Below are positions 32,898 to 63,441 of a stretch of DNA of 64,000 bases, in pieces. Position 1 is the first letter of the stretch; each line of letters starts with the position of its first letter. The DNA is taken from contig NZ_QAJN01000010.1 in the NCBI RefSeq assembly GCF_003852425.1, forward strand, positions 390,963 through 454,962. Reading direction: 5' to 3'. The notes under the pieces were generated by a model, which saw only the letters and a program-made list of their open reading frames with translations, did no database searches and had not been told where the DNA came from. The translations under genes were made by a program, and so were the position numbers. The stretch is from Paucibacter sp. KBW04 (GTDB lineage Bacteria; Pseudomonadota; Gammaproteobacteria; Burkholderiales; Burkholderiaceae_C).

Positions 32898-35800
32898 ATG
32901 GCATCTCTGATCTCGAACCTAAGCACCGACCAAATCGCTGGCCTGTCCACTGCCACCTTGGCGAGACTGAACAGCGAGGACTGGGCGGCTTTCTCGAGCG
33001 ACCAGTTCCAAGCGCTAACCACGCTTCAGTTTGCTTCGCTGGGCTCCCGTGCGGTCTCCATGTTCACGACCAGCAATATTGCTGCGATCGAGAGCGATGA
33101 TTTGCGGGCCCTCAGCACCACCGCATTCCGCACCTTCAACTCCGAACAGCTGAATTCACTGGGTTCGGATCAGTTTTCTGCGATCACGACACAGCAAGTC
33201 GGCGCACTCAACTCCAGCCAGCTGCGCAATCTCGAGTCCGATGACTTGAACGCCCTGGCCAGCGATCAAATTCGAGCGCTGAGTACCGCGCAAATCGGCG
33301 CGATTTCGACCTCCTTGATCAGCTCCATGGCCTCGGACGATGTCCAGGCCCTGCGATCCGAGCAGATCAGAGGGCTGAACTCCTCGCAGGTGGGCGCCCT
33401 CTCCACCGACGCCATCGCCGCCCTGCAAACTCAACAGGCCGCCGCCTTGACCAGCAGTCAGGCCGCGGCCTTGAGTTCTGATCAGACCACCGCCCTGCAC
33501 ACCGACACGATCAACGCACTCAGCACGACCGCGATTCGTGCCCTGGGCACCGATCAGGTGGCCGCCCTGAGCTCGGACCAGGTCGCAGCGCTGAGCACCC
33601 AGCAACTTGCAAGTGCCAGCACCCAACAAATCGCGCAACTCGCCAGCGAAGACCTGGCTGCGCTGAACTCCACCCAGATTCGCGCCTTCACCACGGCCCA
33701 GATTGCGGCCTTGAACACCGATCAGCTGGCCGGTTTGGGCAGCGAGGATGTGCAAGCACTTTCCACCGCCCAGGTGCGTGCGCTCAACTCCAGCCAACTC
33801 GGCGCCTTGAGCAGCGACTCCATCGAGGCCATGAGTTCGCAGCAGATCGCAGCCCTGAACTCGGTCCAGGTCCAAGGCCTGAACACCGATCAGATGGCCG
33901 CCATCAGCTCGGACGATATCCGCGCCCTTGGCACCGCAGCCCTGCGCGCCTTGTCGACCGATCAATTTGCCGCGCTGCAATCGGATCAGATCGGCGCCCT
34001 GAGCAGCGCCCAGGTCATTGCCATGACCACGGCCCAAGTCGCTTCTCTGGCCAGCGATGACCTGAATGCCTTCAACAGCGCCCAGATCCGGGCCATGGGT
34101 ACCGCTCAGGTGGCGGCGCTGACCAGCGACCAGGTCAGCACCATGGCCAGCGACGATGTGCAGGCACTCAGCTCCACACAGCTGCAAGCCCTGAACTCCA
34201 CCCAGGTGGGCGCTTTGTCCACCGACAGCATCGAGGCCTTGAGCTCCAACCAGGTCGCTGCGCTGAGCTCGCGCCAGGTCCAGGGCCTGAGCACGGACCA
34301 AATGGCCGCGATCGAAACGGCCGACCTGAAGGCCATGAGCAGCGGCGCCCTGCGCTCGCTCAGCACCGATCAGTTCGCCGCGCTGAACTCCGACCAAGTC
34401 GGCGCGCTCACCAGCAGCCAAGTCGGCGCCCTGACCACGGCCCAAGTGGCCGCCATGGCCACCGATGACCTGAATGCCTTCAACAGCGCGCAGATCCGCG
34501 CCCTGGGCACGGCCCAAGTCGCCGCCCTGACCAGCGACCAAGTGGCCGCCATGGCCAGCGATGATGTGCAGGCCCTCAGCTCGGTCCAGTTGCAAGCGCT
34601 GAACTCCAACCAGTTCGGCGCTCTGTCGACCGACGGTATTGCTGCCCTGGGCTCCAGCCAAGTCGCTGCACTCAGCTCCAAGCAAGTTCAGGGCATGAGC
34701 ACCGATCAAATGGTGGCCCTTGAATCCAGTGATCTGAAGGCCTTGTCGACGGCCGCCCTGCGTTCCCTGAATACCGAGCAGTTTGCGGCCCTGCAATCCG
34801 ACCAAGTCGGCGCCTTGAGCTCGACCCAGGTCAGTGCCTTGACCACGGCCCAGGTGGCCGCCATGGCCAGCGACGATCTGAACGCCTTCAACAGCGCCCA
34901 GATCCGCGCTCTGACCACCGCCCAGATCGCCGCCTTGACATCCGATCAGGTCGCCGCCATGGCCACCGACGATGTGCAAGCCATCAGCAGCACCCAGCTG
35001 CAAGCGCTCAACTCCGTCCAGGTGGGGGCCCTGTCGACCGACAGCATTGCCGCCCTGACCTCCAACCAAGTCGGCGCCTTGAACTCCGTGCAAGTCAAGG
35101 GCCTGAGCACCGATCAGATGGCCGCCATCGAGTCCAATGACTTGAAGGCCATGTCCACCAGCGCCCTGCGCGCCCTGGGCACCGACCAATTTGAAGCCCT
35201 CAACTCCGAGCAAGTCGCCGCCCTGACGACCAGCCAGGTCGGCTCCCTGACCACCGCCCAAGTCGAGGCCCTGGCCAGCGATGATCTGAATGCCTTCAAC
35301 AGCGCTCAGATTCGCGCCCTCAGCACCGCGCAAATCGGCGCACTGACCAGCTCGCAGGTCGGTGCGATGGACACCGACGATGTGCAAGCCCTGAGCTCCG
35401 TTCAGCTGCAAGCGATGAACTCGGTGCAAGTTGGCGCGCTGAGCACAGACAGCATCGTGGCCCTGAGTTCGAGCCAGGTTGGCGCGCTGAGTTCCAAGCA
35501 AGTGCAAGGCCTGAGCACCGACCAGATGGCCGCCATCGAGTCCAATGACTTGAAGGCCCTCTCCACGGCCGCCCTGCGCTCCCTGGGCACCGACCAATTT
35601 GCGGCGCTGCAGTCTGATCAGATCGGCGCCCTGAGCACCTCTCAGGTCGGCGCCTTGACCACGGCCCAAGTGGCCGCCATGGCCACCGACGACCTCAATG
35701 CCTTTGGCAGCGGCCAGATGCGTGCGTTGAGCACCAGCCAGATCGCCGCCCTGACCAGCGATCAAGTTGCCGCCCTGGACACCGAGGGCGTCCAGGCTCT

Positions 35801-38800
35801 CAGCTCCAACCAGTTGCAAGCCCTGAACTCCAACCAGTTTGGCGCCCTCGGCACCGATGCGATTGCCGCCCTCAGCTCGGCCCAAGTGGGCGCCCTGAGC
35901 TCCAAGCAAGTCCAGGGCCTGAGCACCGACCAGATGGCCGCCATCGAGTCCGATGACATCAAGGCCCTGTCCACCGCCGCCCTGCGCTCCCTCAGCACCG
36001 ATCAATTCGGCGCGCTGGAGTCCGACCAGGTCGGCGCCCTGAGCAGCAACCAAGTCGTCGCACTGACCACCGGTCAGATCGCGGCCCTGGCCAGCGACGA
36101 CCTGAACGCCTTCAACAGCGCGCAGATCCGCGCCCTGAGCAGTACACAGCTCGCTGCCCTTGGCACCGCTCAAATTGCTGCCATGGAGAGCGCCGACATC
36201 CAGGCCCTCAGCAGCAACCAGATCCAAGCCCTCAGCTCGGACCAGATCGGCGCGCTCTCGACCGACAATATCGTCGCCCTGACCTCGAATCAGATCGGTG
36301 CGCTGACCTCGCGCCAAGTCCAGGGCCTGAGCACCGACCAGATCGCCGCAATTGAAACCAACGATCTGCGCTCGCTCACCACCGTCGGCCTGAAGTCGCT
36401 GGGCACCCAGCAGACCGACGCCTTGCTGTCCGATCAAATCGCGGCCCTGACCACCTCGCAGGTCAACGCCCTGACCACCGCCCAGCTCTCAACGCTGAGT
36501 AGCGACAGCCTGAACGCCTTCAACAGCAGCCAGATCCGCGCCCTGAGCACGGCCCAGCTGGTGGCCCTGAGCACCTCGCAAGTGGCCGCCATGGCCAGCG
36601 ACGATGTGCAAGCCCTGGCCTCCAACCAGGTCCAAGCCCTGCACTCCGACCAAGTCGGCGCCCTGTCCACCGACAGCATTGCCGCCCTGAGCTCCAGCCA
36701 AGTGGCTGCACTGACCTCGGTGCAGGTCAAGGGTCTGGGCACGGAGCAAATGGCCGCCATCGAAACCGGCGACCTCAAGGCCCTGTCCACCGCCGCCCTG
36801 CGTGCCCTGGACAGCAGCCAGCTCGATGCCCTGAACTCGCTGCAGATCGCCGCCCTGAGCACGGCCCAAGTCGCCGCCCTGACGAGCACCCAGGTCAGCC
36901 AGCTCTCGACCGATGACGTCAACGCCCTGACCAGCGGCCAGCTGCGTGCGCTCACCAGCGCTCAGCTCGTGGCCCTGAGCAGCGACCAACTAGAGGCCCT
37001 GGACTCGACCCAGATCGCTGCCTTGGCCAGCAACCAGGTCGCCGCCCTGACCAGCACCCAGATCAGCCAGCTCGGCAGCGATGACCTCAATGCCCTGACC
37101 AGCAACCAAATCAATGCCCTGACCACGGCCCAAGTCGCCGCGCTGGCGACCTCGCAGCTCGCCGCCATGGCCACGGAAGATGTGCAAGCCCTGAACTCGC
37201 GTCAGATCCAGGCCCTGAACTCGGATCAAGTCGGCGCCCTGTCCTCGGACGGCATCGTCGCCCTGAGCTCCGCTCAGATCGGCGCGCTGACCTCGGTGCA
37301 GGTCAAGGGCCTGGGCACGGACCAGATGGCCGCCATCGAGTCCAACGACTTGAAGGCCATGTCCACCGCCGCCTTGCGTGCGCTGGACAGCAGTCAACTC
37401 GACGCCCTGGACTCGAACCAGATCGCCGCGCTGAACACCAACCAGATCGCCGCACTGAACACGCTGCAGATCAGCCAGCTGAGCACCGATGATCTGAACG
37501 CCTTCACCAGCGCCCAGATCCGTGCCCTCAGCACTGCCCAAATGGCAGCGCTGAGCACCTCGCAAGTCGCAGCCTTGGCGACCGACGATGTGCAAGCCAT
37601 CAGTTCCGTCCAGCTGCGAGCCCTGGACTCTGCCCAGGTCGGCGCCCTGTCCTCCGACGGCATCGAAGCCCTGAGCTCCAGCCAGCTCGGCGCGCTCACC
37701 TCGACGCAAGTCAAGGGCCTGAGCACGGATCAGATGGCAGCCATCGAGTCGGCCGACCTGAAGGCCCTGTCCACCGCCGCCCTGCGCGCCCTGGACAGCA
37801 GCCAGCTCGACGCCCTGAACTCGCAACAAATCGCGGCCCTCAGTACCGTCCAAGTGGCGTCCTTGAGCAGCTTGCAGATCAGTCAGCTCTCCAGCGACGA
37901 CCTGAACGCATTCGAGAGTGCGCAGATCCGTGCCCTGGGCACGGCCCAGGTGGCCGCGCTGAGCAGCGACCAAGTCTCCACCCTGACGACCGAGGACGTG
38001 CAGGCCCTCAGCTCCACCCAGGTGCAGGCCCTGAACTCGGCCCAGGTCGGCGCCCTGTCCTCGGACGGCATCGCCGCCATGAGCTCGGCCCAGATCGGCG
38101 CGCTGAACTCGGTGCAGGTCAAGGGCTTGGGCACGGACCAGATGGCCGCCATCGAGTCGAATGACTTGAAGGCCCTGTCCACCGCCGCCCTGCGGGCCCT
38201 GGACAGCAGCCAGCTCGACGCCCTGGACTCGACCCAGATCGCCGCCCTGAACACCAATCAGGTCGCCGCGCTGAACACGCTGCAGATCAGCCAGCTCTCG
38301 ACCGATGATTTGAGCGCCTTCACCAGCGCCCAGATCCGCGCCCTGGGTACCGCCCAGGTGGCGGCGCTGACCAGCGAGCAGATTGGGTCCCTGGCCACCG
38401 ACGCTGTGCAAGCCCTCAGCTCTACTCAGCTCCGAGCCTTGGATTCGAGCCAGGTCGGCGCCCTGTCATCCGACGGCATCGAAGCCCTGAGCTCCAGCCA
38501 AGTCGGCGCCCTGACCTCGGTGCAGGTCAAGGGCCTGGGCACGGATCAGATGGCGGCCTTTGAATCGGCCGACCTGAAGGCCCTGTCCACCGCCGCCCTG
38601 CGTGCTCTGGACAGCAGCCAGCTCGACGCGCTGAACTCGCAGCAAATCAGCGCACTGAACACCAACCAGGTTGCCGCGCTGAGCACCTTGCAGATCAGCC
38701 AGCTCTCCAGCGATGACCTGAACGCACTCGAGAGCGTGCAGATTCGGGCCCTGAGCACGGCCCAGGTGGCCGCGCTGAGCAGCGACCAAGTCTCCACCCT

Positions 38801-41800
38801 GACGACCGAGGACGTGCAGGCTCTCAGCTCCACCCAGGTCCAAGCCCTGAAGTCGGACCAGGTCGGCGCCCTGTCCTCGGACGGCATCGCCGCCATGAGC
38901 TCCAGCCAGATTGCTGCCCTGAACTCGGTGCAGGTCAAGGGTCTGGGCACGGATCAGATGGCCGCCATCGAGTCGAATGACTTGAAGGCCTTGTCCACCG
39001 CCGCCCTGCGTACCTTGGACAGCAACCAACTCAACGCCCTGGATTCGCTGCAGATCGCCGCCCTGAGCAGCACCCAAGTTGCAGCCCTGACGACGGCTCA
39101 AATCAGCCAGCTGGCCACCGACGATTTCAGCGCGCTGACCAGCAACCAGCTGCGCGCCCTGACGACTACTCAGATCACCGCCCTGGGCAGCGACCAACTA
39201 GAGGCCCTGGACTCGACCCAGATCGCCGCCTTGGCCAGCAACCAGGTCGCAGCCCTGACCAGCACCCAGGTCAGCCAGCTGAGCAGCGATGACCTCAATG
39301 CCCTGACCAGCGCACAGATCGTGGCCCTGAGCACCGGCCAAATTGCTGCCCTGAGCACCAGCCAAGTCAGCACCATGGCCACCGAGGATGTACAGGCCCT
39401 GAACTCGCGTCAGATCCAGGCCCTGCACTCCGACCAAGTCGGCGCCCTGTCCACCGACAGCATTGCCGCCCTGAGCTCTAGCCAAGTGGCTGCGCTGACC
39501 TCGGTGCAGGTCAAGGGCCTGGGCACGGAGCAAATGGCCGCCATCGAAACCGGCGACCTCAAGGCCCTGTCCACCGCCGCCCTGCGTGCCCTGGACAGCA
39601 GCCAGCTCGATGCCTTGAACTCGCTGCAGATCGCCGCCCTGAGCACGGCCCAAGTCGCCGCCCTGACGAGCACCCAGGTCAGCCAGCTCTCGACCGATGA
39701 CGTCAACGCCCTGACCAGCGGCCAGCTGCGTGCGCTCACCAGCGCTCAGCTCGTGGCCCTGAGCAGCGACCAACTAGAGGCCCTGGACTCGACCCAGATC
39801 GCCGCCTTGGCCAGCAACCAGGTCGCCGCCCTGACCAGCACCCAGATCAGCCAGCTCAGCAGCGATGACCTCAATGCCCTGACCAGCAATCAAATCAATG
39901 CCCTGACCACGGCCCAAGTCGCCGCGCTGGCGACCTCGCAGCTCGCCGCCATGGCCACGGAGGATGTGCAAGCCCTGAACTCGCGTCAGATCCAGGCCCT
40001 GGGCTCGGATCAAGTCGGCGCCCTGTCCTCGGACGGCATCGTCGCCCTGAGCTCCGCTCAGGTCGGCGCGCTGACCTCGGTGCAGGTCAAGGGCCTGGGC
40101 ACGGACCAGATGGCCGCCATCGAGTCCAACGACTTGAAGGCCATGTCGACCGCCGCCCTGCGCGCCCTGGACAGCAGCCAGCTCGACGCCCTGGACTCGA
40201 ACCAGATCGCCGCGCTGAACACCAACCAGATCGCCGCACTGAACACGCTGCAGATCAGCCAGCTGAGCACCGATGATCTGAACGCCTTCACCAGCGCCCA
40301 GATCCGCGCCCTGAGCAGCGCCCAAGTGGCGGCATTGGCAACAGCCCAAGTCGCCTCCCTGGCCACCGACGATGTGCAAGCCCTCAGCTCCACTCAGATT
40401 CAAGCCTTGAATTCGAGCCAGGTCGGCGCCCTGTCCTCCGACGGCATCGAGGCCCTGAGCTCCACCCAAGTCGGCGCGCTGACCTCGGTGCAAGTCAAGG
40501 GTCTGGGCACGGATCAGATGGCCGCCATCGAGTCGAACGACTTGAAGGCCCTGTCCACCGCCGCCCTGCGCGCCCTGGACAGCAGCCAGCTCGACGCCCT
40601 GAACTCGCAACAGATCGGTGCCCTCAGCACGGCCCAGGTGGCTTCCTTGAGCACCTTGCAGATCAGCCAGCTCTCCAGCGATGACCTGAACGCTTTTGAC
40701 AGCGCCCAGATTCGTGCCCTGGGCACGGCCCAGGTGGCCGCGCTGAGCAGCGACCAAGTTTCTACCCTGACGACCGAGGACGTGCAAGCCCTCAGCTCCA
40801 CCCAGGTGCAGGCCCTGAACTCGGTCCAAGTCGGCGCCCTGTCCTCGGACGGCATCGCCGCCATGAGCTCCAGCCAGATCGGCGCGCTGAATTCGGTGCA
40901 GGTCAAGGGCTTGGGCACGGACCAGATGGCCGCCATCGAGTCGAACGACTTGAAGGCCCTGTCCACCGCCGCCCTGCGCGCCCTGGACAGCAGCCAGCTC
41001 GACGCCCTGGACTCGACCCAGATTGCCGCCCTGAACACCAACCAAGTCGCCGCGCTGAACACGCTGCAGATCAGCCAGCTCTCGACCGACGATGTGAACG
41101 CCCTCACCAGCGCTCAGATCAAGAGCATGACGACGGCTCAGGTCGCGGCGCTGGGCAGTGATCAGCTCGACGCGCTCGACTCGACGCAGATCGGCGCGCT
41201 GACCAGCGTGCAGGTTGCCGCGCTGACGACCAGCCAGGTCAGCCAGCTGAGCACCGATGATCTGAACGCCTTCGACAGCAACCAGATCCGCGCCCTCGGC
41301 ACGGCCCAGGTGGCGGCGCTGACGAGCGACCAGGTCGCGGCCATGGCCACGAACGATGTGCAGGCCCTCAGCTCCACCCAGGTGCAAGCCCTGAACTCGG
41401 CCCAGATCGGCGCCTTGTCCAGCGACAGCATCGAGGCCCTCAACTCCACCCAAGTCGGCGCGCTGAGCTCGGTGCAGGTCAAGGGTCTGGGCACGGATCA
41501 GATGGCCGCCATCGAGTCCAACGACTTGAAGGCCCTGTCCACCGCCGCCCTGCGCGCCCTGGACAGCAGCCAGCTCGACGCGCTGGATTCGCTGCAGATC
41601 GCCGCCCTGACCAGCGTCCAAGTGGCCGCCTTCAACACGCTGCAGATCAGCCAGTTGTCCACCGATGATTTGAATGCCTTCACCAGCAATCAGATCCGCG
41701 CCCTGGGCACAACCCAGCTCGCCGCCCTGGCCACAGACCAGGTGGCTGCGATGGCCACGGACGATGTGCAAGCCCTGGCGACCCACCAATTGCAGGCCTT

Positions 41801-43862
41801 CAGCTCGGCCCAGCTGGGCGCCCTGTCCACCGACAGCATCGAAGCCCTGAGCTCAGCCCAGGTCGGCGCGCTGACCTCGGTACAAGTCACGGGCTTGGGC
41901 AGCGATCAGATGGCGGCCATCGAGTCGAATGACCTGAGGAGTCTGAGCACCGCCGCCCTGCGGGCCCTGGACAGTGCACAGATCGACGCACTGAACTCTC
42001 AGCAAATCGGCGCTCTGAGCACCTTGCAGATCGCCGCGCTGAGCACGCTGCAGATCAGCCAGCTGTCTACCGACGACTTGAACGCCTTCGACAGCAGCCA
42101 GATCCGCGCCCTGGGCACCGCTCAAGTGGCGGCCCTGGCCAGCGCGCAAGTGGCCGATATGACGACGGACGATGTGCAGGCGCTGAGCAGCATCCAGCTG
42201 CAGGCCTTCAACTCGACCCAGCTCGGCGCCCTCTCGACCGACGCTATCGAGGCGCTCAACACCAGCCATTTCGCCAGCCTCAACTCGGTCCAGGTCAATG
42301 GCCTGAGCAGTGATCAGATGGCCGCCATCGAGACCGCCGACCTGCGCGCCCTCAGCACGCTGGCCCTGCGTTCACTCGACAGCAGCCAGCTCGACGCCCT
42401 GGACTCGCTGCAGTTCGCTGCCCTGAGCACCCTGCAAGTGGCGGCGCTGACGACGCTGCAGGTCAGCCAGCTCTCGACGGACGATTTGTTCGCCCTGACC
42501 AGCAATCAGGTCGCGGCCTTGAGCTCGGCCCAGTTGGTGGCCTTGACGACGGATCAGCTGACCGGCTTCGGCACCGAAGACATCGCGGCCATCAGCACGG
42601 TCAATCTGGGCGCCTTCGGCTCCTCGGACTTCGAGGCATTTAGCTCGGATCAGCTCCACGCCCTGAGTTCCTCGCAATGGTCTGCGGTGAGCAGCGCCCA
42701 GATCATCGGCATCGAGACGGATGACATCGCCGCCATCTCGACCGCGGGTCTGCATGCGCTGAGCACCATGGCCCTGCAAGCCATGAGCACGGGCCAGATC
42801 GAAGCCCTGGAATCCGAACAGGTCGCGGCACTGAGCACGGCCCAGATCCGCGCCCTGGACACGGACCAGATCCAAGCCCTGCAAACCGAGGACATCGCTG
42901 CGCTGGACACGATGCATATCGCGGCCTTGAGCTCGGCACACTTTGCCGCCTTCACGACCGACCAGATGATGGCCTTGGCCTCGGAGGACATCAAGGCGCT
43001 GAACTCGATCCAGATCGACGGGCTGTCGACCCAACAGCTGTCGGTGCTGACCTCGGATCAGATGGTGGGCTGGGAGACCCAGGACATCGCCAGCTTGAGC
43101 ATGGAGCAGGCCTTAACCTTCACCTCGGATCAAACCGTCGGCTTCAGCAATGCCCAGTTGGACGCCTTGTTCGCCGCCACTCCCATCGTGCTGGATCTGG
43201 ATGGCAATGGCATCCAGACGCTGGCGGCTTCGCAAGGGGTGAACTTCGACCTCAACGGCACCGGCAACGCCCAGAAGTGGGGCTGGGTGGGCGGCAACGA
43301 CGGCCTGCTGGCCCTGGATCGCAACGGCGACGGCAAGATCAACAACGGCACCGAGTTGTTTGGCTCCGGCACCGTGCTGGCCAACGGCCACCGCGCCGCC
43401 GACGGCTTCGCGGCTCTGAACACCCTGGACAGCAACCACGACGGCAAGATCGACGCCGGCGACACGCAGTTCAAGGAGCTCAAGGTCTGGGTCGATGCCA
43501 ACCACGACGGCAAGACCGATGTGGGCGAGCTGGTGGGCTTGGTGGACTTGGGCATCTCTCATCTCAACCTCAGCGCCACCGCGGGCACCGAGATGAATAA
43601 CGGCAATCTCTTGGGACTGGTGTCGAGCTACACAAGCACCGACGGCAGCAGCCACGCGATGACCGATGTCTGGTTCACCAAGGATGTGTCGCAACATCCG
43701 CAGGTTCAGCTCGACGATGTCTTGGCCCAACCGGCAAGCAATCTGCTGGGCGGCGGCGCGACGACGGCAACGCCGACGACGCCAAGCCAAGCGCATACGG
43801 AGATGGTGATCTTGAAACCCAAGCAAGACGAGGAGGCGAATAACCCGCCACCACTGCTGTAA
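32898..43862 (+). CDS. Giant octapeptide-repeat protein with C-terminal calcium-binding module
   Basis: A 3654-residue protein. Residues 1-3424 are 428 consecutive octapeptides with no phase break; the consensus is S/N/T/G-S/T-x-Q-V/I/L-x-A-L. Position 4 is nearly always Gln, or Asp in scattered DD octads. I saw no cysteine, and no proline inside the array; about two of eight residues are Ser or Thr. Residues 3425 to about 3590 are a module common in type I secretion substrates: ATPIVLDLDGNGIQTL, then EF-hand-like loops DRNGDGKINNG, DSNHDGKIDAGD and DANHDGKTDVGE. The tail is Pro/Thr-rich and ends PPPLL. There is no N-terminal signal peptide, which agrees with C-terminal type I export. AAGGGAG precedes the ATG. 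Fold and function are unknown; a surface fibre or layer is inferred. Confidence 0.9.
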   Translation: MASLISNLSTDQIAGLSTATLARLNSEDWAAFSSDQFQALTTLQFASLGSRAVSMFTTSNIAAIESDDLRALSTTAFRTFNSEQLNSLGSDQFSAITTQQVGALNSSQLRNLESDDLNALASDQIRALSTAQIGAISTSLISSMASDDVQALRSEQIRGLNSSQVGALSTDAIAALQTQQAAALTSSQAAALSSDQTTALHTDTINALSTTAIRALGTDQVAALSSDQVAALSTQQLASASTQQIAQLASEDLAALNSTQIRAFTTAQIAALNTDQLAGLGSEDVQALSTAQVRALNSSQLGALSSDSIEAMSSQQIAALNSVQVQGLNTDQMAAISSDDIRALGTAALRALSTDQFAALQSDQIGALSSAQVIAMTTAQVASLASDDLNAFNSAQIRAMGTAQVAALTSDQVSTMASDDVQALSSTQLQALNSTQVGALSTDSIEALSSNQVAALSSRQVQGLSTDQMAAIETADLKAMSSGALRSLSTDQFAALNSDQVGALTSSQVGALTTAQVAAMATDDLNAFNSAQIRALGTAQVAALTSDQVAAMASDDVQALSSVQLQALNSNQFGALSTDGIAALGSSQVAALSSKQVQGMSTDQMVALESSDLKALSTAALRSLNTEQFAALQSDQVGALSSTQVSALTTAQVAAMASDDLNAFNSAQIRALTTAQIAALTSDQVAAMATDDVQAISSTQLQALNSVQVGALSTDSIAALTSNQVGALNSVQVKGLSTDQMAAIESNDLKAMSTSALRALGTDQFEALNSEQVAALTTSQVGSLTTAQVEALASDDLNAFNSAQIRALSTAQIGALTSSQVGAMDTDDVQALSSVQLQAMNSVQVGALSTDSIVALSSSQVGALSSKQVQGLSTDQMAAIESNDLKALSTAALRSLGTDQFAALQSDQIGALSTSQVGALTTAQVAAMATDDLNAFGSGQMRALSTSQIAALTSDQVAALDTEGVQALSSNQLQALNSNQFGALGTDAIAALSSAQVGALSSKQVQGLSTDQMAAIESDDIKALSTAALRSLSTDQFGALESDQVGALSSNQVVALTTGQIAALASDDLNAFNSAQIRALSSTQLAALGTAQIAAMESADIQALSSNQIQALSSDQIGALSTDNIVALTSNQIGALTSRQVQGLSTDQIAAIETNDLRSLTTVGLKSLGTQQTDALLSDQIAALTTSQVNALTTAQLSTLSSDSLNAFNSSQIRALSTAQLVALSTSQVAAMASDDVQALASNQVQALHSDQVGALSTDSIAALSSSQVAALTSVQVKGLGTEQMAAIETGDLKALSTAALRALDSSQLDALNSLQIAALSTAQVAALTSTQVSQLSTDDVNALTSGQLRALTSAQLVALSSDQLEALDSTQIAALASNQVAALTSTQISQLGSDDLNALTSNQINALTTAQVAALATSQLAAMATEDVQALNSRQIQALNSDQVGALSSDGIVALSSAQIGALTSVQVKGLGTDQMAAIESNDLKAMSTAALRALDSSQLDALDSNQIAALNTNQIAALNTLQISQLSTDDLNAFTSAQIRALSTAQMAALSTSQVAALATDDVQAISSVQLRALDSAQVGALSSDGIEALSSSQLGALTSTQVKGLSTDQMAAIESADLKALSTAALRALDSSQLDALNSQQIAALSTVQVASLSSLQISQLSSDDLNAFESAQIRALGTAQVAALSSDQVSTLTTEDVQALSSTQVQALNSAQVGALSSDGIAAMSSAQIGALNSVQVKGLGTDQMAAIESNDLKALSTAALRALDSSQLDALDSTQIAALNTNQVAALNTLQISQLSTDDLSAFTSAQIRALGTAQVAALTSEQIGSLATDAVQALSSTQLRALDSSQVGALSSDGIEALSSSQVGALTSVQVKGLGTDQMAAFESADLKALSTAALRALDSSQLDALNSQQISALNTNQVAALSTLQISQLSSDDLNALESVQIRALSTAQVAALSSDQVSTLTTEDVQALSSTQVQALKSDQVGALSSDGIAAMSSSQIAALNSVQVKGLGTDQMAAIESNDLKALSTAALRTLDSNQLNALDSLQIAALSSTQVAALTTAQISQLATDDFSALTSNQLRALTTTQITALGSDQLEALDSTQIAALASNQVAALTSTQVSQLSSDDLNALTSAQIVALSTGQIAALSTSQVSTMATEDVQALNSRQIQALHSDQVGALSTDSIAALSSSQVAALTSVQVKGLGTEQMAAIETGDLKALSTAALRALDSSQLDALNSLQIAALSTAQVAALTSTQVSQLSTDDVNALTSGQLRALTSAQLVALSSDQLEALDSTQIAALASNQVAALTSTQISQLSSDDLNALTSNQINALTTAQVAALATSQLAAMATEDVQALNSRQIQALGSDQVGALSSDGIVALSSAQVGALTSVQVKGLGTDQMAAIESNDLKAMSTAALRALDSSQLDALDSNQIAALNTNQIAALNTLQISQLSTDDLNAFTSAQIRALSSAQVAALATAQVASLATDDVQALSSTQIQALNSSQVGALSSDGIEALSSTQVGALTSVQVKGLGTDQMAAIESNDLKALSTAALRALDSSQLDALNSQQIGALSTAQVASLSTLQISQLSSDDLNAFDSAQIRALGTAQVAALSSDQVSTLTTEDVQALSSTQVQALNSVQVGALSSDGIAAMSSSQIGALNSVQVKGLGTDQMAAIESNDLKALSTAALRALDSSQLDALDSTQIAALNTNQVAALNTLQISQLSTDDVNALTSAQIKSMTTAQVAALGSDQLDALDSTQIGALTSVQVAALTTSQVSQLSTDDLNAFDSNQIRALGTAQVAALTSDQVAAMATNDVQALSSTQVQALNSAQIGALSSDSIEALNSTQVGALSSVQVKGLGTDQMAAIESNDLKALSTAALRALDSSQLDALDSLQIAALTSVQVAAFNTLQISQLSTDDLNAFTSNQIRALGTTQLAALATDQVAAMATDDVQALATHQLQAFSSAQLGALSTDSIEALSSAQVGALTSVQVTGLGSDQMAAIESNDLRSLSTAALRALDSAQIDALNSQQIGALSTLQIAALSTLQISQLSTDDLNAFDSSQIRALGTAQVAALASAQVADMTTDDVQALSSIQLQAFNSTQLGALSTDAIEALNTSHFASLNSVQVNGLSSDQMAAIETADLRALSTLALRSLDSSQLDALDSLQFAALSTLQVAALTTLQVSQLSTDDLFALTSNQVAALSSAQLVALTTDQLTGFGTEDIAAISTVNLGAFGSSDFEAFSSDQLHALSSSQWSAVSSAQIIGIETDDIAAISTAGLHALSTMALQAMSTGQIEALESEQVAALSTAQIRALDTDQIQALQTEDIAALDTMHIAALSSAHFAAFTTDQMMALASEDIKALNSIQIDGLSTQQLSVLTSDQMVGWETQDIASLSMEQALTFTSDQTVGFSNAQLDALFAATPIVLDLDGNGIQTLAASQGVNFDLNGTGNAQKWGWVGGNDGLLALDRNGDGKINNGTELFGSGTVLANGHRAADGFAALNTLDSNHDGKIDAGDTQFKELKVWVDANHDGKTDVGELVGLVDLGISHLNLSATAGTEMNNGNLLGLVSSYTSTDGSSHAMTDVWFTKDVSQHPQVQLDDVLAQPASNLLGGGATTATPTTPSQAHTEMVILKPKQDEEANNPPPLL
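36631..38310 (+). repeat. Upstream copy of an internal segmental duplication
   Basis: This stretch of about 1.7 kb matches 39415-41094 at a constant offset of 2784 bp (116 octads), with long runs of identity over the first 900 bp and patchy divergence later. Boundaries were read by eye: similarity drops before 36631 and after 38310. Confidence 0.8.
39415..41094 (+). repeat. Downstream copy of the internal segmental duplication
   Basis: Partner of 36631-38310 at +2784 bp. The order of super-repeat lengths (576, 408, 408) is the same in both copies up to the end of the match and differs after it, which supports duplication of the whole block rather than chance similarity of repeats. Confidence 0.8.
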
Positions 43863-43942: not shown

Positions 43943-46900
43943 ATGGCCAGCAATATTCCCAACCTCAGCCTCGAAGAAATCGCCAACCTCAGCACCGCAC
44001 AGATTGCGGCGTTGAAAGTGAGCGACTGGGCGGCGTTCTCCCCTGCGCAGATGGGAGCGCTGACCACGCTGCAGATGGCCTCGCTGACCGGGCGCACCCT
44101 GAACCTGATGGCGGCAGGCCCGCTCTACGCCGTAGAGGCTCAGGACATACGGGCCATCAGCACGACGACGCTGCGGGGCATCAGCACGGCCGCCTTGAGC
44201 GAGTTCACCGCCGAGCAAATCGGCGCGCTGACCACCACCCAGGTCAGCTCGCTGAGCGTGGCGCGCCTGCGCGGGCTCAGCAGCGAGCAGTTCAGTGCAC
44301 TGGACCTTGAACAAACCTCCTCGCTGACCCTGGCCCAGGTGCGGGGGCTGACGACCAACCAGATCAGCTTGCTGCAGCCCGATCAGGTCGGTGCCTTCAG
44401 CACGCTGGCGATCCGGGTGCTCAGCGGCGCCCAGCTGGGGGCGCTCACGACGGATCAGCTGCCATCTCTGACGGTCGACCAGGTCTCCGTGCTGAAAGGC
44501 AGCCAGAGCGCCTCCTTGCATGGCGATCAAATTGGGGCCTTGCACGCCGATACTTTGCAGGCCCTGAACAGCTCGGCCATTCGCGGGCTCAGCTCGACCG
44601 CCATCGCCGAGCTCCCCACCTCGGCCCTGCTGGCGCTCTTGCCCAATCAGGTGGCGGCCCTGAACACCATGCAGGTGCGCAGCCTGAACAGTGTGGCTTT
44701 TGCCGCCCTGGAGACCGAGGATCTGGCCGCGCTGGGAAGTCATCAGCTGCGCGCCCTGAGTTCCGCCCAGATTGACTCGCTCGCGCTCGAGGACATGCAG
44801 GCCCTGGGCACCTATGGCGCTCGTTCCCTGAGCTCCAGCCAGCTGGGCATGCTGCGCGCCGAGCAGATCGACGCACTTGACAGCGCCCAAATCGCCAGCC
44901 TGAACTCGCGCCAGCTCGGCGGCTTGAACAGCACCCAGGTGGCGGCCCTGACGGCCGAAGACATCGGCGTGCTCAGCAGCACGGCCCTCGCGGGCCTCAA
45001 GACCCAGACCCTGGCCGCCATGGTGGGCGAGCAATTGGCGGGCCTGAACAGCGCGCAGATTCGCACGCTCAGCTCCGCGCAGCTGCGGGCCTTGGACAGC
45101 GAGGACTTGCTGGCCCTGAGCGCCGACCAGTTCTCCGCCCTCAATTCCAAGCAGATCCGGGGCCTCAGCTCCGATCAGCTCAGCGTGCTGCAGCAAGAGG
45201 ACGTGGCCGCACTCAGCAGCCTGGCCATACGCGGTCTGAGCTCCTTGCAATTCGCCGCGCTGAGCGGCGAGCAGTTTGCGGCCTTGACCAGCAACCAGAC
45301 GCTCTCGCTCAGCAGCTTGCAGCTGCGCGGACTCAATGAAAGCCAGCTCGGCGCGCTGAGCGAGCAAGCCTTGCAGGCGCTGTCCACCCGTGCCATCCAG
45401 GGCCTCAGCACCAGCCAGCTTGACGCCATGAGCCCCGACCAGATCACCATGCTGGCGACTAATCAGGTACGTGCGCTGACCAAGCAGCAACTGATCTCAC
45501 TCAACACCGATGATCTGAACTCGCTGAGCAGCCTGCAATTCGCCGCGCTCAGCTCCACCCAGTTCAGCGCCTTGACCAGCTTGCAGATCGCCAATCTGCA
45601 GGGCGAGGATTTCGGCGCCCTGTCCTCCTCGGTCATACGCTCACTGGGTACACAGCAGGTGGCGGCCTTGGATGGCGCCATGCTGCATGCGCTCAGCAGT
45701 GCGCAGGCCATGCAACTCACCTCGGCCCAGATTACGGCCCTCAGCGCCGCTCAGCTCGACCTGCTCAGCTCGCAGGCAATCCAGGGGCTGAGTTCGCTTG
45801 CCCTGCGCGGACTCAGCACCGATCAGCTCAATGCCTTGGGCGCCGATCAACTGCCCTTGCTGCGCCCCGAGCAATTGGCCGGCCTGAACACGGCCCAGAT
45901 CCGCAGCCTCAGTGCCGAGGTCTTGAACCTGCTGGAGAGTTCGGCCTTTGCCGCACTCAGTTCCAACCAAATCGCCGCCATCTCTGCCGAGCAGCTCGGC
46001 GCCATCGCGCCCGAGCGCATCTCGGGCTTGGGCGCACGCTATATCGCGGCGCTCAGCACCGAGCAGTTTGCGGCGCTCAGCCCGGCCCAGTTGGCGGGTT
46101 TGAGCAGCAGCCAGGTCAACGCCTTCACGGTGCGGCAACTGCCAGCCCTGAACTCTGAACAGCTGGCCTCCATCAATAGCGACGCAATTCAAGGCTTGAG
46201 CCCCACCGCCCTGCGTTCGCTCAACAGCTTGCAACTCAATGCGCTGGAGGCCGATCAGGTCGCGGCCCTGCTCACCTCGCAAGTAATCGCGCTGAGCAGC
46301 GCCCAGCTCAACCATTGGTCGAATGAAGACTTGAATGCGCTGGGCAGCCAGCATTTCGCGGCCCTGAGCGACCGGCAGATCAGTGGTCTCAGCACCTTGC
46401 AGATGTCGGGCCTGGAGGCGGCCGACCTGGCCGCCATCGGCACCAAGTCCTTGCTGGCCTTGAACTCTCTGCAACTGGCCGCCCTGGCCCCCGACAATAT
46501 TGAAGCTCTGAGCACCTTGCAGGTAGCGGCTCTGAGTTCGCGCCAGATCCAGGGCCTCAGCACCGACCAGCTGGACCACCTCAGCGGGGATCAGCTCGCG
46601 GCGCTGTCGACCTCGGCCCTGCGCAATTTGAGCACCGCCCAATTTGAATCACTGGACGCCGAGCAGATCAGCCGGCTGACGCCCGCCCAGATGACGGCCT
46701 TGCGCTCCAGCCAGCTGGCCGCCATGTCGCCGGATGAATTGACGGCCCTGGACAGTCTACAGTTCTCGATGTTGAGGTCGGACCAGTTGGCCGGCTTGAC
46801 CACCCAACAGCTGGCAGCGATTGATCTGGGCGATTTGCTAACCCTGGGCACCCAGGTCATTCGCTCGCTCAGCCCGGCCCAAATCGCCAGCTTCAACACC

Positions 46901-47662
46901 GATCAAATCATCGCCCTGACCAGCTCACAAGTGGCGGCACTGAGCTTCCGCCAGGCCGAGGCGATGCGAACAGACCAGATCGCCGCGCTCGACACCCATC
47001 AGGTCGCGGCCTTGAGCAATGTGCAGGTACTGGCCTGGAACAGCAGCCAGATGGCCGCCCTGGATTCCCAGGATCTGGCCGTGCTACCCGCTGGCACGTT
47101 TCGGGTGATCGAGGTCGGTGATTTGATGGCCTTCAACACCGACCAGATCCATGCCCTGAACGCGGCACAAATCGCTCAACTCAGCAGCGCCCAGATGGCG
47201 GGTTTTGGCTCCGACGATATCGGGGCCTTGTCCGCCGAGGCCTTTGTCAGCCTCAATAGCGCGGCCTTGCGCAGCCTCAGTGCGACCCAGCTCGCCGGGA
47301 TTGGCGGGGAGCAGGTCGACGCCCTCACCACCCAAGTCATTGCCAGCCTCTCGACCCAGACCCTCCATGGCCTGGGCAGCTCGGCCATCGCCTCGCTGGA
47401 CACCTTGCAGGTGCACGCACTGAGCACGGCACAGCTGCGCGCCATCAACTCCGACAGCTTTGCGGCCCTGGGCAGTGAAGAGTTGGCCGCCCTGAGCACC
47501 TGGCAGGTGAAGGCCTTGAGCACTGAGCAGATCCACGCCATCGGCTCCGACATGGTGCAGGGTTTCGAAACTCAGGACCTGGCGGCCCTGAATATGCAGC
47601 AGGCCACGGCCTTCACCACCGATGCCTTGCAGAGCATGACGGGTGAGCAGCTCGATGCGCTC
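43943..47662 (+). repeat. Unbroken array of 155 coding 24-bp units
   Basis: 3720 bp = 155 x 24 from the ATG to the octad TGEQLDAL that precedes the calcium-binding module. Register is kept throughout, while the unit sequences have diverged far more than in the giant gene. Confidence 0.92.
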
Positions 47663-48379
47663 TTCATGGCCACGCCCATCATGTTGAATCTGGACGGGAT
47701 GGGGCTGTCCACCGTCAGCGCGGCACATGGGGTCGCGTTTGACCTCAACGGCACGGGCAAAACCCAGCAATGGGGTTGGATGGCCGGAGGCAATGGCTTG
47801 CTCGCGCGCGACCTCAACGGCGATGGCCAGATCAATTCCGGCACCGAACTATTCGGCAGCGGCACGGTCTTGGCCACGGGTCAGCGCGCGGCCAATGGCT
47901 ATGAGGCGATGCGCAATCTTGACCTCAACCACGATGGCTTGCTGAATGCAAAGGACGCGGCCTTCGGCGAACTTCGCATCTGGACCGACACCAATCACAA
48001 CGGCAAGACCGAGGGCGGTGAGCTGAAGTCGCTGGCGGAGCTAGGCATCAGCGAGTTGGACCTGAGCGCCCAAGCCAGCAGCGTCATCGACCACGGCAAT
48101 CTGGTCGGCCTGGTCTCGAGCTACAAGAGCAGCGACGGCGCCTCTCATGCCATGGGCGATGTCTGGTTTGCCAAAGATGTGCTGACGCCCCAGCAAGCCA
48201 AGCCCCAGCTTGCGCTGGAGGATTTGCTGCTGCCCAGTAGCAGCGCCTTGCTGGCCCAGGCGGCAGATCATGGCAGCGCTGCCGACAAGCAGGCAGCGGC
48301 CAGCGCGAGCCTGCTGAGCCCTCTGGAGCGCAAATTGCAAGAAGAAGCCCAGCAGCAGCTTGGCGGCCCCTTGCTCTGA
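43943..48379 (+). CDS. Second octapeptide-repeat protein, paralogue of the giant protein
   Basis: A 1478-residue protein with the same plan: residues 1-1240 are 155 octapeptides in unbroken phase. The calcium-binding module follows (FMATPIMLNLDGMGLSTV, then loops DLNGDGQINSG, DLNHDGLLNAKD and DTNHNGKTEGGE), and the tail ends LGGPLL. The first 100 residues align with those of the giant protein (MASNIPNLSLEEIANLST, then SDWAAF and TTLQMASL). The octads are more varied in sequence and show no 408-bp super-repeat. No N-terminal signal peptide and no cysteine were seen. No clear ribosome site precedes the ATG, 80 nt after the giant gene, which suggests lower or coupled translation. Likely a co-secreted partner, minor subunit or cap; this is inferred. 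Confidence 0.88.
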   Translation: MASNIPNLSLEEIANLSTAQIAALKVSDWAAFSPAQMGALTTLQMASLTGRTLNLMAAGPLYAVEAQDIRAISTTTLRGISTAALSEFTAEQIGALTTTQVSSLSVARLRGLSSEQFSALDLEQTSSLTLAQVRGLTTNQISLLQPDQVGAFSTLAIRVLSGAQLGALTTDQLPSLTVDQVSVLKGSQSASLHGDQIGALHADTLQALNSSAIRGLSSTAIAELPTSALLALLPNQVAALNTMQVRSLNSVAFAALETEDLAALGSHQLRALSSAQIDSLALEDMQALGTYGARSLSSSQLGMLRAEQIDALDSAQIASLNSRQLGGLNSTQVAALTAEDIGVLSSTALAGLKTQTLAAMVGEQLAGLNSAQIRTLSSAQLRALDSEDLLALSADQFSALNSKQIRGLSSDQLSVLQQEDVAALSSLAIRGLSSLQFAALSGEQFAALTSNQTLSLSSLQLRGLNESQLGALSEQALQALSTRAIQGLSTSQLDAMSPDQITMLATNQVRALTKQQLISLNTDDLNSLSSLQFAALSSTQFSALTSLQIANLQGEDFGALSSSVIRSLGTQQVAALDGAMLHALSSAQAMQLTSAQITALSAAQLDLLSSQAIQGLSSLALRGLSTDQLNALGADQLPLLRPEQLAGLNTAQIRSLSAEVLNLLESSAFAALSSNQIAAISAEQLGAIAPERISGLGARYIAALSTEQFAALSPAQLAGLSSSQVNAFTVRQLPALNSEQLASINSDAIQGLSPTALRSLNSLQLNALEADQVAALLTSQVIALSSAQLNHWSNEDLNALGSQHFAALSDRQISGLSTLQMSGLEAADLAAIGTKSLLALNSLQLAALAPDNIEALSTLQVAALSSRQIQGLSTDQLDHLSGDQLAALSTSALRNLSTAQFESLDAEQISRLTPAQMTALRSSQLAAMSPDELTALDSLQFSMLRSDQLAGLTTQQLAAIDLGDLLTLGTQVIRSLSPAQIASFNTDQIIALTSSQVAALSFRQAEAMRTDQIAALDTHQVAALSNVQVLAWNSSQMAALDSQDLAVLPAGTFRVIEVGDLMAFNTDQIHALNAAQIAQLSSAQMAGFGSDDIGALSAEAFVSLNSAALRSLSATQLAGIGGEQVDALTTQVIASLSTQTLHGLGSSAIASLDTLQVHALSTAQLRAINSDSFAALGSEELAALSTWQVKALSTEQIHAIGSDMVQGFETQDLAALNMQQATAFTTDALQSMTGEQLDALFMATPIMLNLDGMGLSTVSAAHGVAFDLNGTGKTQQWGWMAGGNGLLARDLNGDGQINSGTELFGSGTVLATGQRAANGYEAMRNLDLNHDGLLNAKDAAFGELRIWTDTNHNGKTEGGELKSLAELGISELDLSAQASSVIDHGNLVGLVSSYKSSDGASHAMGDVWFAKDVLTPQQAKPQLALEDLLLPSSSALLAQAADHGSAADKQAAASASLLSPLERKLQEEAQQQLGGPLL

Positions 48380-49503: not shown

Positions 49504-49520
49504 ACCCGCCGGGCCAAGCC

Positions 49521-51487: not shown

Positions 51488-51524
51488 ATATTCCAACCAT
51501 CAATCCAGCACAAGGTAATTCGCC

Positions 51525-62079: not shown

Positions 62080-63441
62080 TCAGCGCAGCGGCGTCATCAC
62101 GCCGCGCCCTTGCGACCACATGATGGCCACCACCTGCTGGGCGTCGTAGATGGCGTTCACATGGGCGATGCGCATGGAGTAGTAGTCGCCCTCGGCCGCC
62201 ATCACATCGAAGAGCGAGCGACGTCCCAGTTGCTGCCATTGCTGCAGCGTCGAGGCACGCACCCGGTCGCTGTTACGCAGAATCTCCACGATGCGACGCG
62301 CGCGGTCCAATGCCGAACCCGCCGCCTCGTGCATCTCCAGCACGCGATAGCGCTTGGACTCGATGGCCTCATCGCGCTGCAGGTTGGCGGACTGGGCCCG
62401 GCGCAGGGCCGAGGTCAGGGCCGCATCCGCACCCGGCTGATAAAGCGGGATATTGAGGCTGACGCCGCCCTGCCAATCGGTCTGGCGGCTTTGCCCGGCC
62501 GAGGTCGAGCCGCTGACCAGCAAGTTGACACTAGGCTTTTGCCCGGCCTGAACCGACTCGGCATAGTTGTACTGCGCCTTGGCCTGAGCGGCGGCTTGAG
62601 CCACATCCGCCGCCAGCAGCACATCGGCCTGCATTTGATTCACATCCGGCACGGTGGTCAGCACCGAACTCATGGAGGAACTGCGCGGTAGATCGTCGCC
62701 GACAAAACGGCGCAGCCTCACCTCCGTCTGGCGCAGCGCCGAGACGGTTTGTTCGTAGGACAGCTCGGCCTGCTGCATGCTTTTTTGCGCCTGCACCAAC
62801 TCGCTGGCCCGGCCTTTGTCGGCCTTGGTGATGGTTTCCAAGGCTTCCACCAAACAGCTCATCTTGCGCACGTACTGGCCGTAAACCTGGGCCTGCAATT
62901 GGTAGCGCCCGCGGTCCAGAGCCAGGGTCACGGTTTGCAGTGCCAATTGCTCCTCCGCACTGCTCTGGCCAAAACGGGCCGCCTCGGCCAGTTGCTGGCG
63001 CCACTCGGTCAATTTGCCGATGCGGCCAAAGTCGTACAGCGGTGCGCTGATGCTCAGCGAGCCTTTACCCAGCATGCCTCGCGAAATCGTTTCGCCCCGG
63101 TCCATCAAACCGCTATAGGCCAGCGTCCCTCCCAGGGCCACCGTGGGCAAGCGCTGTGCCTTGGTTTCGGCCAAATCGGCTTCGGCCGCCTGGGCCAACA
63201 AGCGCACGGCGCCAATGGGGCGGCTGCGCGACAAGGCGGTTTGCACCAGCTCTTGCAGCTTCACGCGGGGATCGACCTGGCTGGTCTCCAGCAGGCTGGC
63301 ATCGCGCGGCGGCGGGGTCAGGGTCGTGCCGTCCTGATCGCTGCAACGCTGCTGGGCAGGGGCTGCGCCGCTGAAAACAAGCGTCAGCGAGACCAGGGCC
63401 AAGCGGCTCAAAGATGGCAGGAGGTGTGATGCGTGAGGCAT
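62080..63441 (-). CDS. TolC-family outer-membrane channel protein
   Basis: 453 residues: a signal peptide (LALVSLTLVFSGAAPAQQ, cleaved near residue 30) followed by two outer membrane efflux protein repeats rich in Ala/Gln coiled coil (LVQTALSRSRPIGAVRLLAQ near residue 66 and LRRAQSANLQRDEAIESKR near residue 340). These form the trimeric beta-barrel and periplasmic tunnel of type I secretion and efflux systems. An HlyD-type adaptor lies just upstream on the same strand, so a secretion role is favoured over drug efflux. The octapeptide proteins are the obvious candidate cargo nearby. Confidence 0.9.
   Translation of the reverse strand: MPHASHLLPSLSRLALVSLTLVFSGAAPAQQRCSDQDGTTLTPPPRDASLLETSQVDPRVKLQELVQTALSRSRPIGAVRLLAQAAEADLAETKAQRLPTVALGGTLAYSGLMDRGETISRGMLGKGSLSISAPLYDFGRIGKLTEWRQQLAEAARFGQSSAEEQLALQTVTLALDRGRYQLQAQVYGQYVRKMSCLVEALETITKADKGRASELVQAQKSMQQAELSYEQTVSALRQTEVRLRRFVGDDLPRSSSMSSVLTTVPDVNQMQADVLLAADVAQAAAQAKAQYNYAESVQAGQKPSVNLLVSGSTSAGQSRQTDWQGGVSLNIPLYQPGADAALTSALRRAQSANLQRDEAIESKRYRVLEMHEAAGSALDRARRIVEILRNSDRVRASTLQQWQQLGRRSLFDVMAAEGDYYSMRIAHVNAIYDAQQVVAIMWSQGRGVMTPLR

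What the first reader, a model, noticed from the sequence alone, without database searches (positions are those of the whole stretch)
32898..43169. 428 octapeptides in unbroken register: a very long solenoid or fibre protein
Seen: 10,272 bp are exactly 428 x 24 with no register slip, with consensus S/T-S/T-x-Q-V/I-x-A-L and no Cys or Pro. Known: RTX repeats are nonapeptides with GGxGxD, and pentapeptide repeats form right-handed beta-helices; this octad matches neither. Inferred: 8 residues do not fit a classical coiled-coil heptad, and the Ser/Thr-xx-Gln/Asp start resembles a helix N-cap, so a superhelix of short helical turns or a Gln-ladder solenoid are both possible.
Basis: partly seen in the sequence, partly recalled or inferred. 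Interest (0 to 1): 0.9.

Follow-up and report, generated by a model that had tools for sequence, protein, structure and literature searches.

The report
Giant secreted screw of short helices
A bacterium related to Roseateles encodes a huge protein built from 428 eight-residue units that is predicted to wind into a very long helical rod, probably exported and perhaps sugar-coated; the repeat is already catalogued, but its regular winding and likely sugar-adding partner make it testable in a new way.

Summary
The octad is not new: it is Pfam PF20080 (ALTTAQ repeat; 2868 bits) and resembles a PDB entry named HeliScrew4. AlphaFold2 gives one short alpha-helix per octad (mean pLDDT 95.6). Sequence alone suggests the winding: residue identity repeats every 3.40 octads, so the 408-bp (17-octad) supra-repeat is five turns, and K/R and D/E lie on different faces. 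The C-terminus is a FrpC-like, Ca-site-bearing self-processing fold that has lost the Asp of the Asp-Pro site. A paralogue with 155 octads follows directly. The genome's only above-cut-off LssB transporter, with HlyD and TolC, lies 14-21 kb downstream in one operon with an O-GlcNAc-transferase-like GT41 enzyme. GT41 genes also sit directly beside octad genes in 11 of 15 plasmid loci opened. Best reading: a T1SS-secreted, probably O-glycosylated alpha-screw nanorod acting as adhesin or matrix scaffold. Secretion is likely, glycosylation plausible, adhesion inferred. Novelty: a new variant of a known repeat kind.

The parts
32898..43862 (+). giant octad gene, 3654 aa (P0001)
   Evidence: unbroken ORF; relatives with conserved N-terminus and C-terminal domain in named Roseateles loci
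32898..43169 (+). 428 octads in exact register (predicted alpha-screw solenoid); 17-octad supra-repeat and 3.40-octad period
   Evidence: register; PF20080, 126 stretches; 408-bp tandem repeats; 3.40-octad period; AF2 model of residues 1-272
43182..43685 (+). FrpC self-processing-module-like domain (residues 3429-3596); cleavage Asp replaced by Thr
   Evidence: 6sjw E 5e-34; fold match, TM by target 0.79; key residues from PMC7078468
43686..43859 (+). C-terminal tail with LDDVL..P stretch, predicted disordered; candidate T1SS signal region (inferred)
   Evidence: pLDDT < 50 over the last 56 residues; similar D-L/V-L..P stretch in relatives
43943..48379 (+). paralogous octad gene, 1478 aa (P0002), with the same kind of C-terminal domain (T-P, not D-P)
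   Evidence: array length 155 octads in 12 of 12 complete copies, window included, to within one residue
43943..47662 (+). 155 octads of the paralogue; Pro tolerated (19 Pro in the array)
   Evidence: spectral peak 3.396 octads
62080..63441 (-). TolC-like outer membrane efflux protein, last gene of the GT41-LssB-HlyD-TolC operon that continues past the window end
   Evidence: PF02321 E 1.5e-25; TIGR01844 E 2.8e-18, below its cut-off; ABC at G000:C2:455910-458024, HlyD L049:2520-3794(-), GT41 L049:6197-8101(-)

Best explanation
P0001 (and its shorter paralogue P0002) is a type-I-secreted rod protein. Each octad folds as one short alpha-helix (Ser/Thr/Asn at position 1 as N-cap, Gln/Asp at 4, hydrophobic 5 and 8 facing the core, small Ala at 7). 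The helices wind into a continuous screw with about 3.40 octads (27 residues) per turn; 428 octads make about 126 turns. At an assumed ~1 nm per turn (recalled helix-packing distance, not measured) that is a rod of the order of 0.1 um. Because 17 octads are five turns, 17-octad duplications keep every octad on the same face; the rod carries a basic edge (position 6 K/R) on a different side from an acidic edge (positions 3, 4, 1 D/E). The chain leaves through the linked LssB-HlyD-TolC apparatus; the C-terminal FrpC-like domain folds on Ca2+ outside but probably cannot cut itself, because its Asp is Thr. Before export the Ser/Thr-rich octads are probably O-glycosylated by the OGT-like GT41 enzyme encoded in the transporter operon. 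The product is most likely a surface or matrix rod used for adhesion or biofilm scaffolding. Shown here: octads, family, gene linkage, residue changes, periodicity in sequence. Predicted: helix fold. Inferred: winding as the cause of the periodicity, secretion, glycosylation, adhesion.
For: Fold: AF2 of residues 1-272, 20-row alignment, mean pLDDT 95.6, pTM 0.85, one 4-6-residue helix per octad; HeliScrew4 sequence match E 3e-18. Winding: strongest spectral peak 0.2935 cycles/octad, power 74 against a shuffle 99% level of 11.4 in P0001, and 0.2945, 18.1 against 11.35, in P0002; phase kept in all four quarters of P0001; same period above shuffles in 4 of 4 alpha/gamma-proteobacterial arrays and 4 of 14 runs from distant genomes. 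The 12 strongest internal DNA duplication lags lie within 0.18 turn of a whole number of turns (lags). C-domain. Secretion: the only above-cut-off LssB of the genome starts 948 bp past the window end; HlyD, TolC; the same genes 1.3 kb from the octad gene in Aquabacterium L038 and 4.5 kb in Ideonella L039. Glycosylation: GT41 matches OGT (human E 1e-81, XcOGT 5e-77), with XcOGT H218 and K388 aligned to H and K; ABC gene directly beside GT41 in 12 of 12 congeners that have a close GT41; GT41 directly beside the octad gene in 11 of 15 plasmid loci.
Against: No experiment here shows secretion, glycosylation or adhesion. Four congeners (G002, 76% complete; G013; G016; G017) have octads but no close GT41; 4 of 15 plasmid loci (one cut by the record start) and all 7 stretches from distant genomes (L042, L070-L075) show no GT41 in view. 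Only 2 of 15 plasmid loci hold a clear T1SS-type ABC gene in view, and two octad genes lie beside flagellar genes instead (L115, L123). Octads were found in none of 12 sampled genomes of other families of the order. Rhizobium, Cereibacter and Rhodovastum members lack the FrpC-like domain, so it is not needed in the whole family. The strongest peak is not near 0.294 in L041, L042, L024, L104 and L116, and 9 of 14 distant runs are dominated by period 2. The charge faces are not seen in every array (K/R power only 3.3 in L113; no position-3 D/E signal in L114, L116). Two arrays of congeners with register shifts (L107, L109) were passed over by the filter. Model coordinates could not be read, so 3.40 octads per turn was not measured on the model.
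Confidence: 0.7

Rival explanations
1. A beta-solenoid (Gln ladder) or leucine-rich-repeat-like fold: octads as strand-turn units stacked in parallel.
For: A period of 27.2 residues per turn is near LRR/beta-helix coil lengths (recalled); LRR_EndoS scores E 1e-21 and many LRR chains appear at weak E.
Against: AF2 predicts only helices in residues 1-272 at pLDDT 95.6; the Foldseek rows shown are led by mesothelin, with ARM, HEAT-type and PUF proteins, and no LRR among the 50 rows; the LRR hits look like cross-matches of Leu-rich repeats.
Confidence: 0.05
2. An RTX clip-and-link adhesin of FrpC type: Ca2+ triggers self-cleavage at the SPM boundary and links the octad rod covalently to neighbours.
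For: SPM fold and Ca-site residues present.
Against: The scissile Asp (D414 of FrpC) is Thr and D478 is Ser in both window genes; all 19 rows of A2 have S or T before the Pro and none has D at the D478 column; no Asp-Pro anywhere in P0001 or P0002 and no GGxGxD repeats.
Confidence: 0.05
3. A cytoplasmic or periplasmic ruler/scaffold with fixed length; the nearby T1SS serves other substrates.
For: Array length is fixed: 363 octads in 10 of 10 complete P0001-type copies of the named loci L025-L034, and 155 (to within one residue) in 12 of 12 P0002-type copies; three of four plasmid members analysed lack the FrpC-like domain.
Against: Other genus members differ (about 333, 349 and 376 octads, 428 here); T1SS genes lie next to octad genes in several genera; the C-terminal Ca-site domain fits export.
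Confidence: 0.12
4. The 3.40 period only echoes 17-octad tandem duplication and says nothing about structure.
For: 17 is prime, so every k/17 frequency is a harmonic of 5/17; P0001 is rich in 408-bp repeats.
Against: P0002 and its orthologues have little 17-lag identity (0.32-0.37 against means of 0.28-0.31) yet the five analysed peak at 3.37-3.40; G010 uses a 38-octad repeat = 11 turns at 3.45; alpha- and gamma-proteobacterial arrays show 3.38-3.41; lags 7, 10, 24, 27, 41, 44, 58 are raised too.
Confidence: 0.15

Closest known systems
Pfam PF20080 ALTTAQ repeat
   Same: Same octad; profile matches 126 stretches of P0001 and 42 of P0002, whole-protein scores far over cut-off
HeliScrew4, PDB 9zem (120 aa; by its name probably a designed protein, inferred)
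   Same: Octads of LTPEQIAAL type; 105 residues aligned without gap, E 3e-18
   Different: Pro mostly at position 2, 120 residues in all; its coordinates and any paper were not available here (0 papers)
FrpC self-processing module (PDB 6sjw/6sjx, PMC7078468)
   Same: Fold (TM by target 0.79), Trp451/519 and most EF-hand-like Asp/Asn positions
   Different: D414 is Thr, D478 is Ser, D423 is Asn; C-terminal instead of internal; no RTX repeats
Mesothelin/stereocilin/otoancorin short-helix solenoids
   Same: Best Foldseek hits (prob 1.00, best E 2e-4); right-handed solenoid of 24 short helices (PMC10035497, passages)
   Different: TM-scores only 0.25-0.35; about 2.7 helices per layer (24 helices, nine layers) against 3.4; no sequence kinship shown; eukaryotic
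HMW1/HMW1C: large adhesin with its own glycosyltransferase (PMC3012730, PMC3983070; search listing and start of abstracts seen)
   Same: Giant exoprotein system that includes a glycosyltransferase partner
   Different: Two-partner secretion and N-glycosylation there; here T1SS linkage and an OGT-type enzyme, only 11 N-x-S/T sequons among 3424 array residues

Membership tests
PF20080 ALTTAQ repeat | profile match above gathering score | tested here: met
   2868.5 and 634.4 bits against a cut-off of 26.4
HeliScrew fold (9zem) | octad sequence | tested here: met
   105 residues aligned without gap, E 3e-18
HeliScrew fold (9zem) | same three-dimensional screw | tested here: inconclusive
   9zem not among the 50 rows shown of 407 Foldseek matches; that library ends on 2026-04-08; coordinates not readable
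FrpC self-processing module | SPM fold | tested here: met
   6sjw prob 1.00, TM by target 0.79; E 5e-34 by sequence
FrpC self-processing module | EF-hand-like Ca ligands | tested here: met
   in P0001 the positions of D419, D421, D456, D462, N464, D499, N501, D503, D521, N523, D525 are kept and D423 is N; counted along the alignment with the residues named in PMC7078468; the paper's N468 could not be mapped. P0002 keeps fewer
FrpC self-processing module | scissile Asp-Pro and fifth Ca site (D414, D478, D579) | tested here: not met
   D414 is T, D478 is S, only D579 kept; no D-P in either protein; S/T-P in 19 of 19 rows of A2
RTX proteins | GGxGxD nonapeptides | tested here: not met
   0 matches in P0001 and P0002
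Type I secretion substrates | dedicated ABC-HlyD-TolC genes linked | tested here: met
   14-21 kb downstream in this genome, 1.3-4.5 kb in L038 and L039
Type I secretion substrates | C-terminal secretion signal | not testable with these tools
   tail is predicted disordered with a conserved D-L/V-L..P stretch; needs secretion assays
Leucine-rich repeats | strand-forming motif and beta sheet | tested here: not met
   no strand in the model of residues 1-272
Mesothelin superfamily | superposable short-helix solenoid | tested here: inconclusive
   prob 1.00 but TM 0.25-0.35; second aligner unavailable
GT41 / OGT (partner enzyme) | TPR plus Glyco_transf_41 with catalytic His and Lys | tested here: met
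   PF13844 E 3.6e-80; XcOGT H218 and K388 aligned to H and K (counted; that these two are catalytic is recalled)

The most novel reading that the evidence does not exclude
The octad proteins are a widespread class of OGT-modified nanorods: an O-GlcNAc-transferase-like enzyme encoded beside them glycosylates Ser/Thr at the helix N-caps before export, and the sequence is phase-locked to a 3.40-octad screw so that acidic, basic and sugared faces run as continuous stripes along ~0.1-um rods that pack side by side into a sheath or matrix.
Probability: 0.35. Interest if true: 0.82.

Novelty: new variant of a known kind. Interest (0 to 1): 0.62.

Why it matters
A small octad screw already has a PDB entry, by its name a designed one; here nature offers arrays of 155 to over 500 units whose winding number can be read from sequence alone, which makes a direct structural test possible. 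The recurring pairing of octad genes with an OGT-type glycosyltransferase in alpha-, beta- and gamma-proteobacteria would give bacterial OGT homologues a concrete candidate substrate. It would also show a Ca-binding self-processing fold kept after loss of its cleavage residue.

Tried and rejected
Considered and rejected: antisense ORFs of up to 1093 aa under the array as genes: taken as by-products of the 24-bp codon pattern; the + frame has the family match, conserved ends and C-terminal domain. Weak Pfam hits CAAP1, Gp5_trimer_C, Fibrinogen_BP, Plug: taken as low-complexity cross-matches. The sugar-nucleotide and glycosyltransferase genes directly downstream (48568-54723) as partners: of ten window neighbours searched in loci L024-L042, only the two upstream ORFs recur beside the octad genes, plus one 31% DegT match, so I dropped them in favour of GT41. 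Length as a strict ruler: dropped.

Led nowhere: paper searches for HeliScrew, ALTTAQ, PF20080 (0 papers each), octapeptide repeat plus alpha solenoid (0), octad terms plus solenoid (12 of 22 listed), GT41/OGT plus T1SS or octapeptide terms (15 of 68 listed). 'Not found in print' rests on these searches of the held PMC library only. A regex test of OGT motifs from recall found none in the window enzyme; the alignment replaced it.

Full report
Observation. The ORF 32898-43862 (+) encodes 3654 residues. Residues 1-3424 are 428 octads in one register, starting at the initiator Met, with the stated consensus and no Cys, Pro or Tyr. A 408-bp (17-octad) higher-order repeat runs through much of the array. 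The frame continues into a 230-residue C-terminal region. A second gene (43943-48379) has 155 octads in register, tolerates Pro (19) and ends in a homologous C-terminal region. All 141 PF20080 matches listed for this genome lie in these two ORFs (which scored 150 of 222 first-look candidates).

Family. Pfam names the octad: PF20080 ALTTAQ repeat, 2868.5 bits for P0001 and 634.4 for P0002. A PDB chain called HeliScrew4 (9zem, 120 aa) consists of LTPEQIAAL-type octads and matches at E 3e-18. No paper naming HeliScrew, ALTTAQ or PF20080 is in the held library. So the repeat is known as a family, and at least one small relative has a solved structure.

Fold. AlphaFold2 on residues 1-272 with 20 rows gave mean pLDDT 95.6, pTM 0.85, one short helix per octad (34 of 34) and no strand. 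The best Foldseek PDB hits are mesothelin chains (prob 1.00, best E 2e-4, TM 0.25-0.35); mesothelin is described as a right-handed solenoid of 24 short helices in nine layers (PMC10035497, passages seen). The low TM-scores mean similar local structure, not the same global shape.

Winding read from sequence. Identity between octads is highest mostly at lags 7, 10, 17, 27, 34, 41, 44, 51 and 58, all near multiples of 3.4; a few arrays also list other lags (5, 6, 13, 21, 31, 37, 38, 55). A Fourier sum over residue indicators puts the strongest peak at 0.2935-0.2965 cycles per octad in 12 of 14 arrays (exceptions: a 100-octad stretch of L041, and the acidobacterial L042). P0001: power 74 against 11.4 (99% of shuffles); P0002: 18.1 against 11.35. 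In one search the strongest peak lay at 0.2895-0.2955 in 12 of 14 arrays (exceptions L024, 0.2835, and L104, 0.1765); two fetched arrays with register shifts, L107 and L109, had been passed over by that script's filter. Three alpha- and one gamma-proteobacterial plasmid arrays gave 0.2935-0.296 far above shuffles (strongest in 3 of 4). In distant genomes of the phylum sample, 4 of 14 runs showed a 0.2925-0.2945 peak above shuffles; 9 of the other 10 are dominated by period 2, alternating octads. Since 17 is prime, tandem 17-octad repeats alone would put power on all k/17, so I rely on arrays with weak 17-lag identity (P0002 type) and on G010, whose supra-repeat is 38 octads = 11 turns (912-bp spacing; peak 0.2895-0.2900). 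The 12 best internal DNA duplication lags of P0001 (24, 34, 41, 58, 82, 92, 99, 106, 116, 140, 150, 157 octads) all lie within 0.18 turn above a whole number of 3.40-octad turns (six computed, six by hand); they are not independent of one another. At this period K/R at position 6 and D/E/N/S at position 3 are phase-locked and about 110-175 degrees apart by octad index in the nine arrays where both pass, with the phase kept in all four quarters of P0001. In four plasmid arrays both faces show only in L115 (157 degrees); L113 has the acidic face alone, L114 the basic one with D/E at positions 1 and 4, L116 only D/E at position 1; L071 and L075 show the basic face alone or nearly so. Reading: the screw has 3.40 octads per turn and distinct long faces. 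This is inference until the model or a structure is measured.

C-terminal domain. Residues 3429-3596 match the FrpC self-processing module by sequence (E 5e-34) and fold (TM by target 0.79). From PMC7078468 (passages seen) the cleavage is of Asp414-Pro415, and D414, D478 and D579 form a fifth Ca site. Here D414 is Thr and D478 Ser, while D579, both Trp and most EF-hand-like Asp/Asn positions are kept (D423 is Asn; N468 of the paper could not be mapped). All 19 aligned rows have Ser or Thr before the Pro, and none has Asp at the D478 column. The domain therefore most likely binds Ca2+ and folds outside the cell but does not clip itself. Its last 56 residues are predicted disordered.

Export. 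In this genome the only LssB-type permease above cut-off lies at C2:455910-458024, 948 bp past the window end. It sits in an operon GT41 - LssB - HlyD - TolC on the minus strand whose last gene is window 62080-63441. The operon lies 14-21 kb downstream of the octad pair. The same genes lie from 1.3 kb on beside the octad gene in Aquabacterium lacunae (L038) and from 4.5 kb on in Ideonella alba (L039, GT41 cut by the locus end).

Partner enzyme. The GT41 protein (TPR plus PF13844, E 3.6e-80) is nearest to human OGT (E 1e-81) and XcOGT (5e-77), farther from SPINDLY (7e-40); XcOGT H218 and K388 align with H and K. A close GT41 (66% identity or more) occurs in 12 of 17 congeners, with the ABC gene directly beside it in 12 of 12 and on the same contig as octads in 9 of 12, 9-37 kb from the nearest listed octad match. 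Octads occur in 16 of 17 congeners; the miss, G014, is 79% complete. G002 (76% complete), G013, G016 and G017 have octads without a close GT41. Octads were seen in none of 12 genomes of other families of the order (E <= 1e-12). Of 57 plasmid records with octads I opened the 15 that one search listed: a GT41 gene lies directly beside the octad gene in 11, ten alpha- and one gamma-proteobacterial (four by Pfam; all eleven by tblastn); of the four without, L122 starts at the octad gene. Some of the 15 are near-duplicates (L113/L120, L119/L127). No GT41 was seen in the seven stretches from distant genomes. No random-gene control was run. In the phylum sample, 7 of 398 genomes, this one included, have octads at E <= 1e-10.

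Mechanism and limits. Most likely: octads are glycosylated in the cytoplasm by the OGT-like enzyme, the unfolded chain is exported by the linked T1SS, the C-terminal domain folds on Ca2+, and the octads wind into a long rod with charged faces that serves adhesion or matrix building. Shown: sequence facts, family, linkage, periodicity. Predicted: helices. Inferred: export, sugar, adhesion, rod length.

Novelty. The repeat family is known; the winding number, the long charged faces, the OGT-like partner and the non-cleaving FrpC-like end were not found in the searches made. I file it as a new variant of a known kind.

Noticed in passing
window 33156-41789, minus strand: Series of long antisense ORFs (up to 1093 aa) under the octad array; taken as by-products of the repeated 24-bp codon pattern.
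   Followed up: partly
window 48568-54723: Downstream of the pair: GT2 glycosyltransferase, an unassigned 289-aa ORF, Fer2 reductase, nucleotidyltransferase, GDP-mannose-dehydratase-like and DegT genes: a deoxysugar-type cluster (inferred) not seen beside octad genes in loci L024-L042 apart from one 31% DegT match.
   Followed up: partly
L115 6509-13619 and L123 5996-10006: In Rhodovastum and Pseudorhizobium the octad gene lies beside flagellar or flagellin genes with GT41 directly next to it; these octad proteins may have another export route or role.
   Followed up: no
L071-L075 (unnamed distant family f57): Very long frames (up to 5675 aa) with two alternating octad types (16-residue units), on top of a 3.4-octad period in some runs.
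   Followed up: partly
L101, L103, L110 (G010): Supra-repeat of 912 bp = 38 octads = 11 turns at 3.45 octads per turn, a different route to whole turns.
   Followed up: partly
window 32982-32984 (residue 29): Trp29 is invariant in all 20 N-terminal rows of both paralogue types; possible N-terminal cap.
   Followed up: no
L030 17275-21975, L107, L109: Register shifts: one residue near residue 640 of the L030 paralogue; single-register counts are low in the long frames of L107 and L109.
   Followed up: partly
L077 and L078: The GT41 matches of G007 and G015 run over one TAG each; not examined.
   Followed up: no
L114 17344-22029: The Cereibacter member is annotated 'heme utilization protein'; nothing here supports that name.
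   Followed up: no
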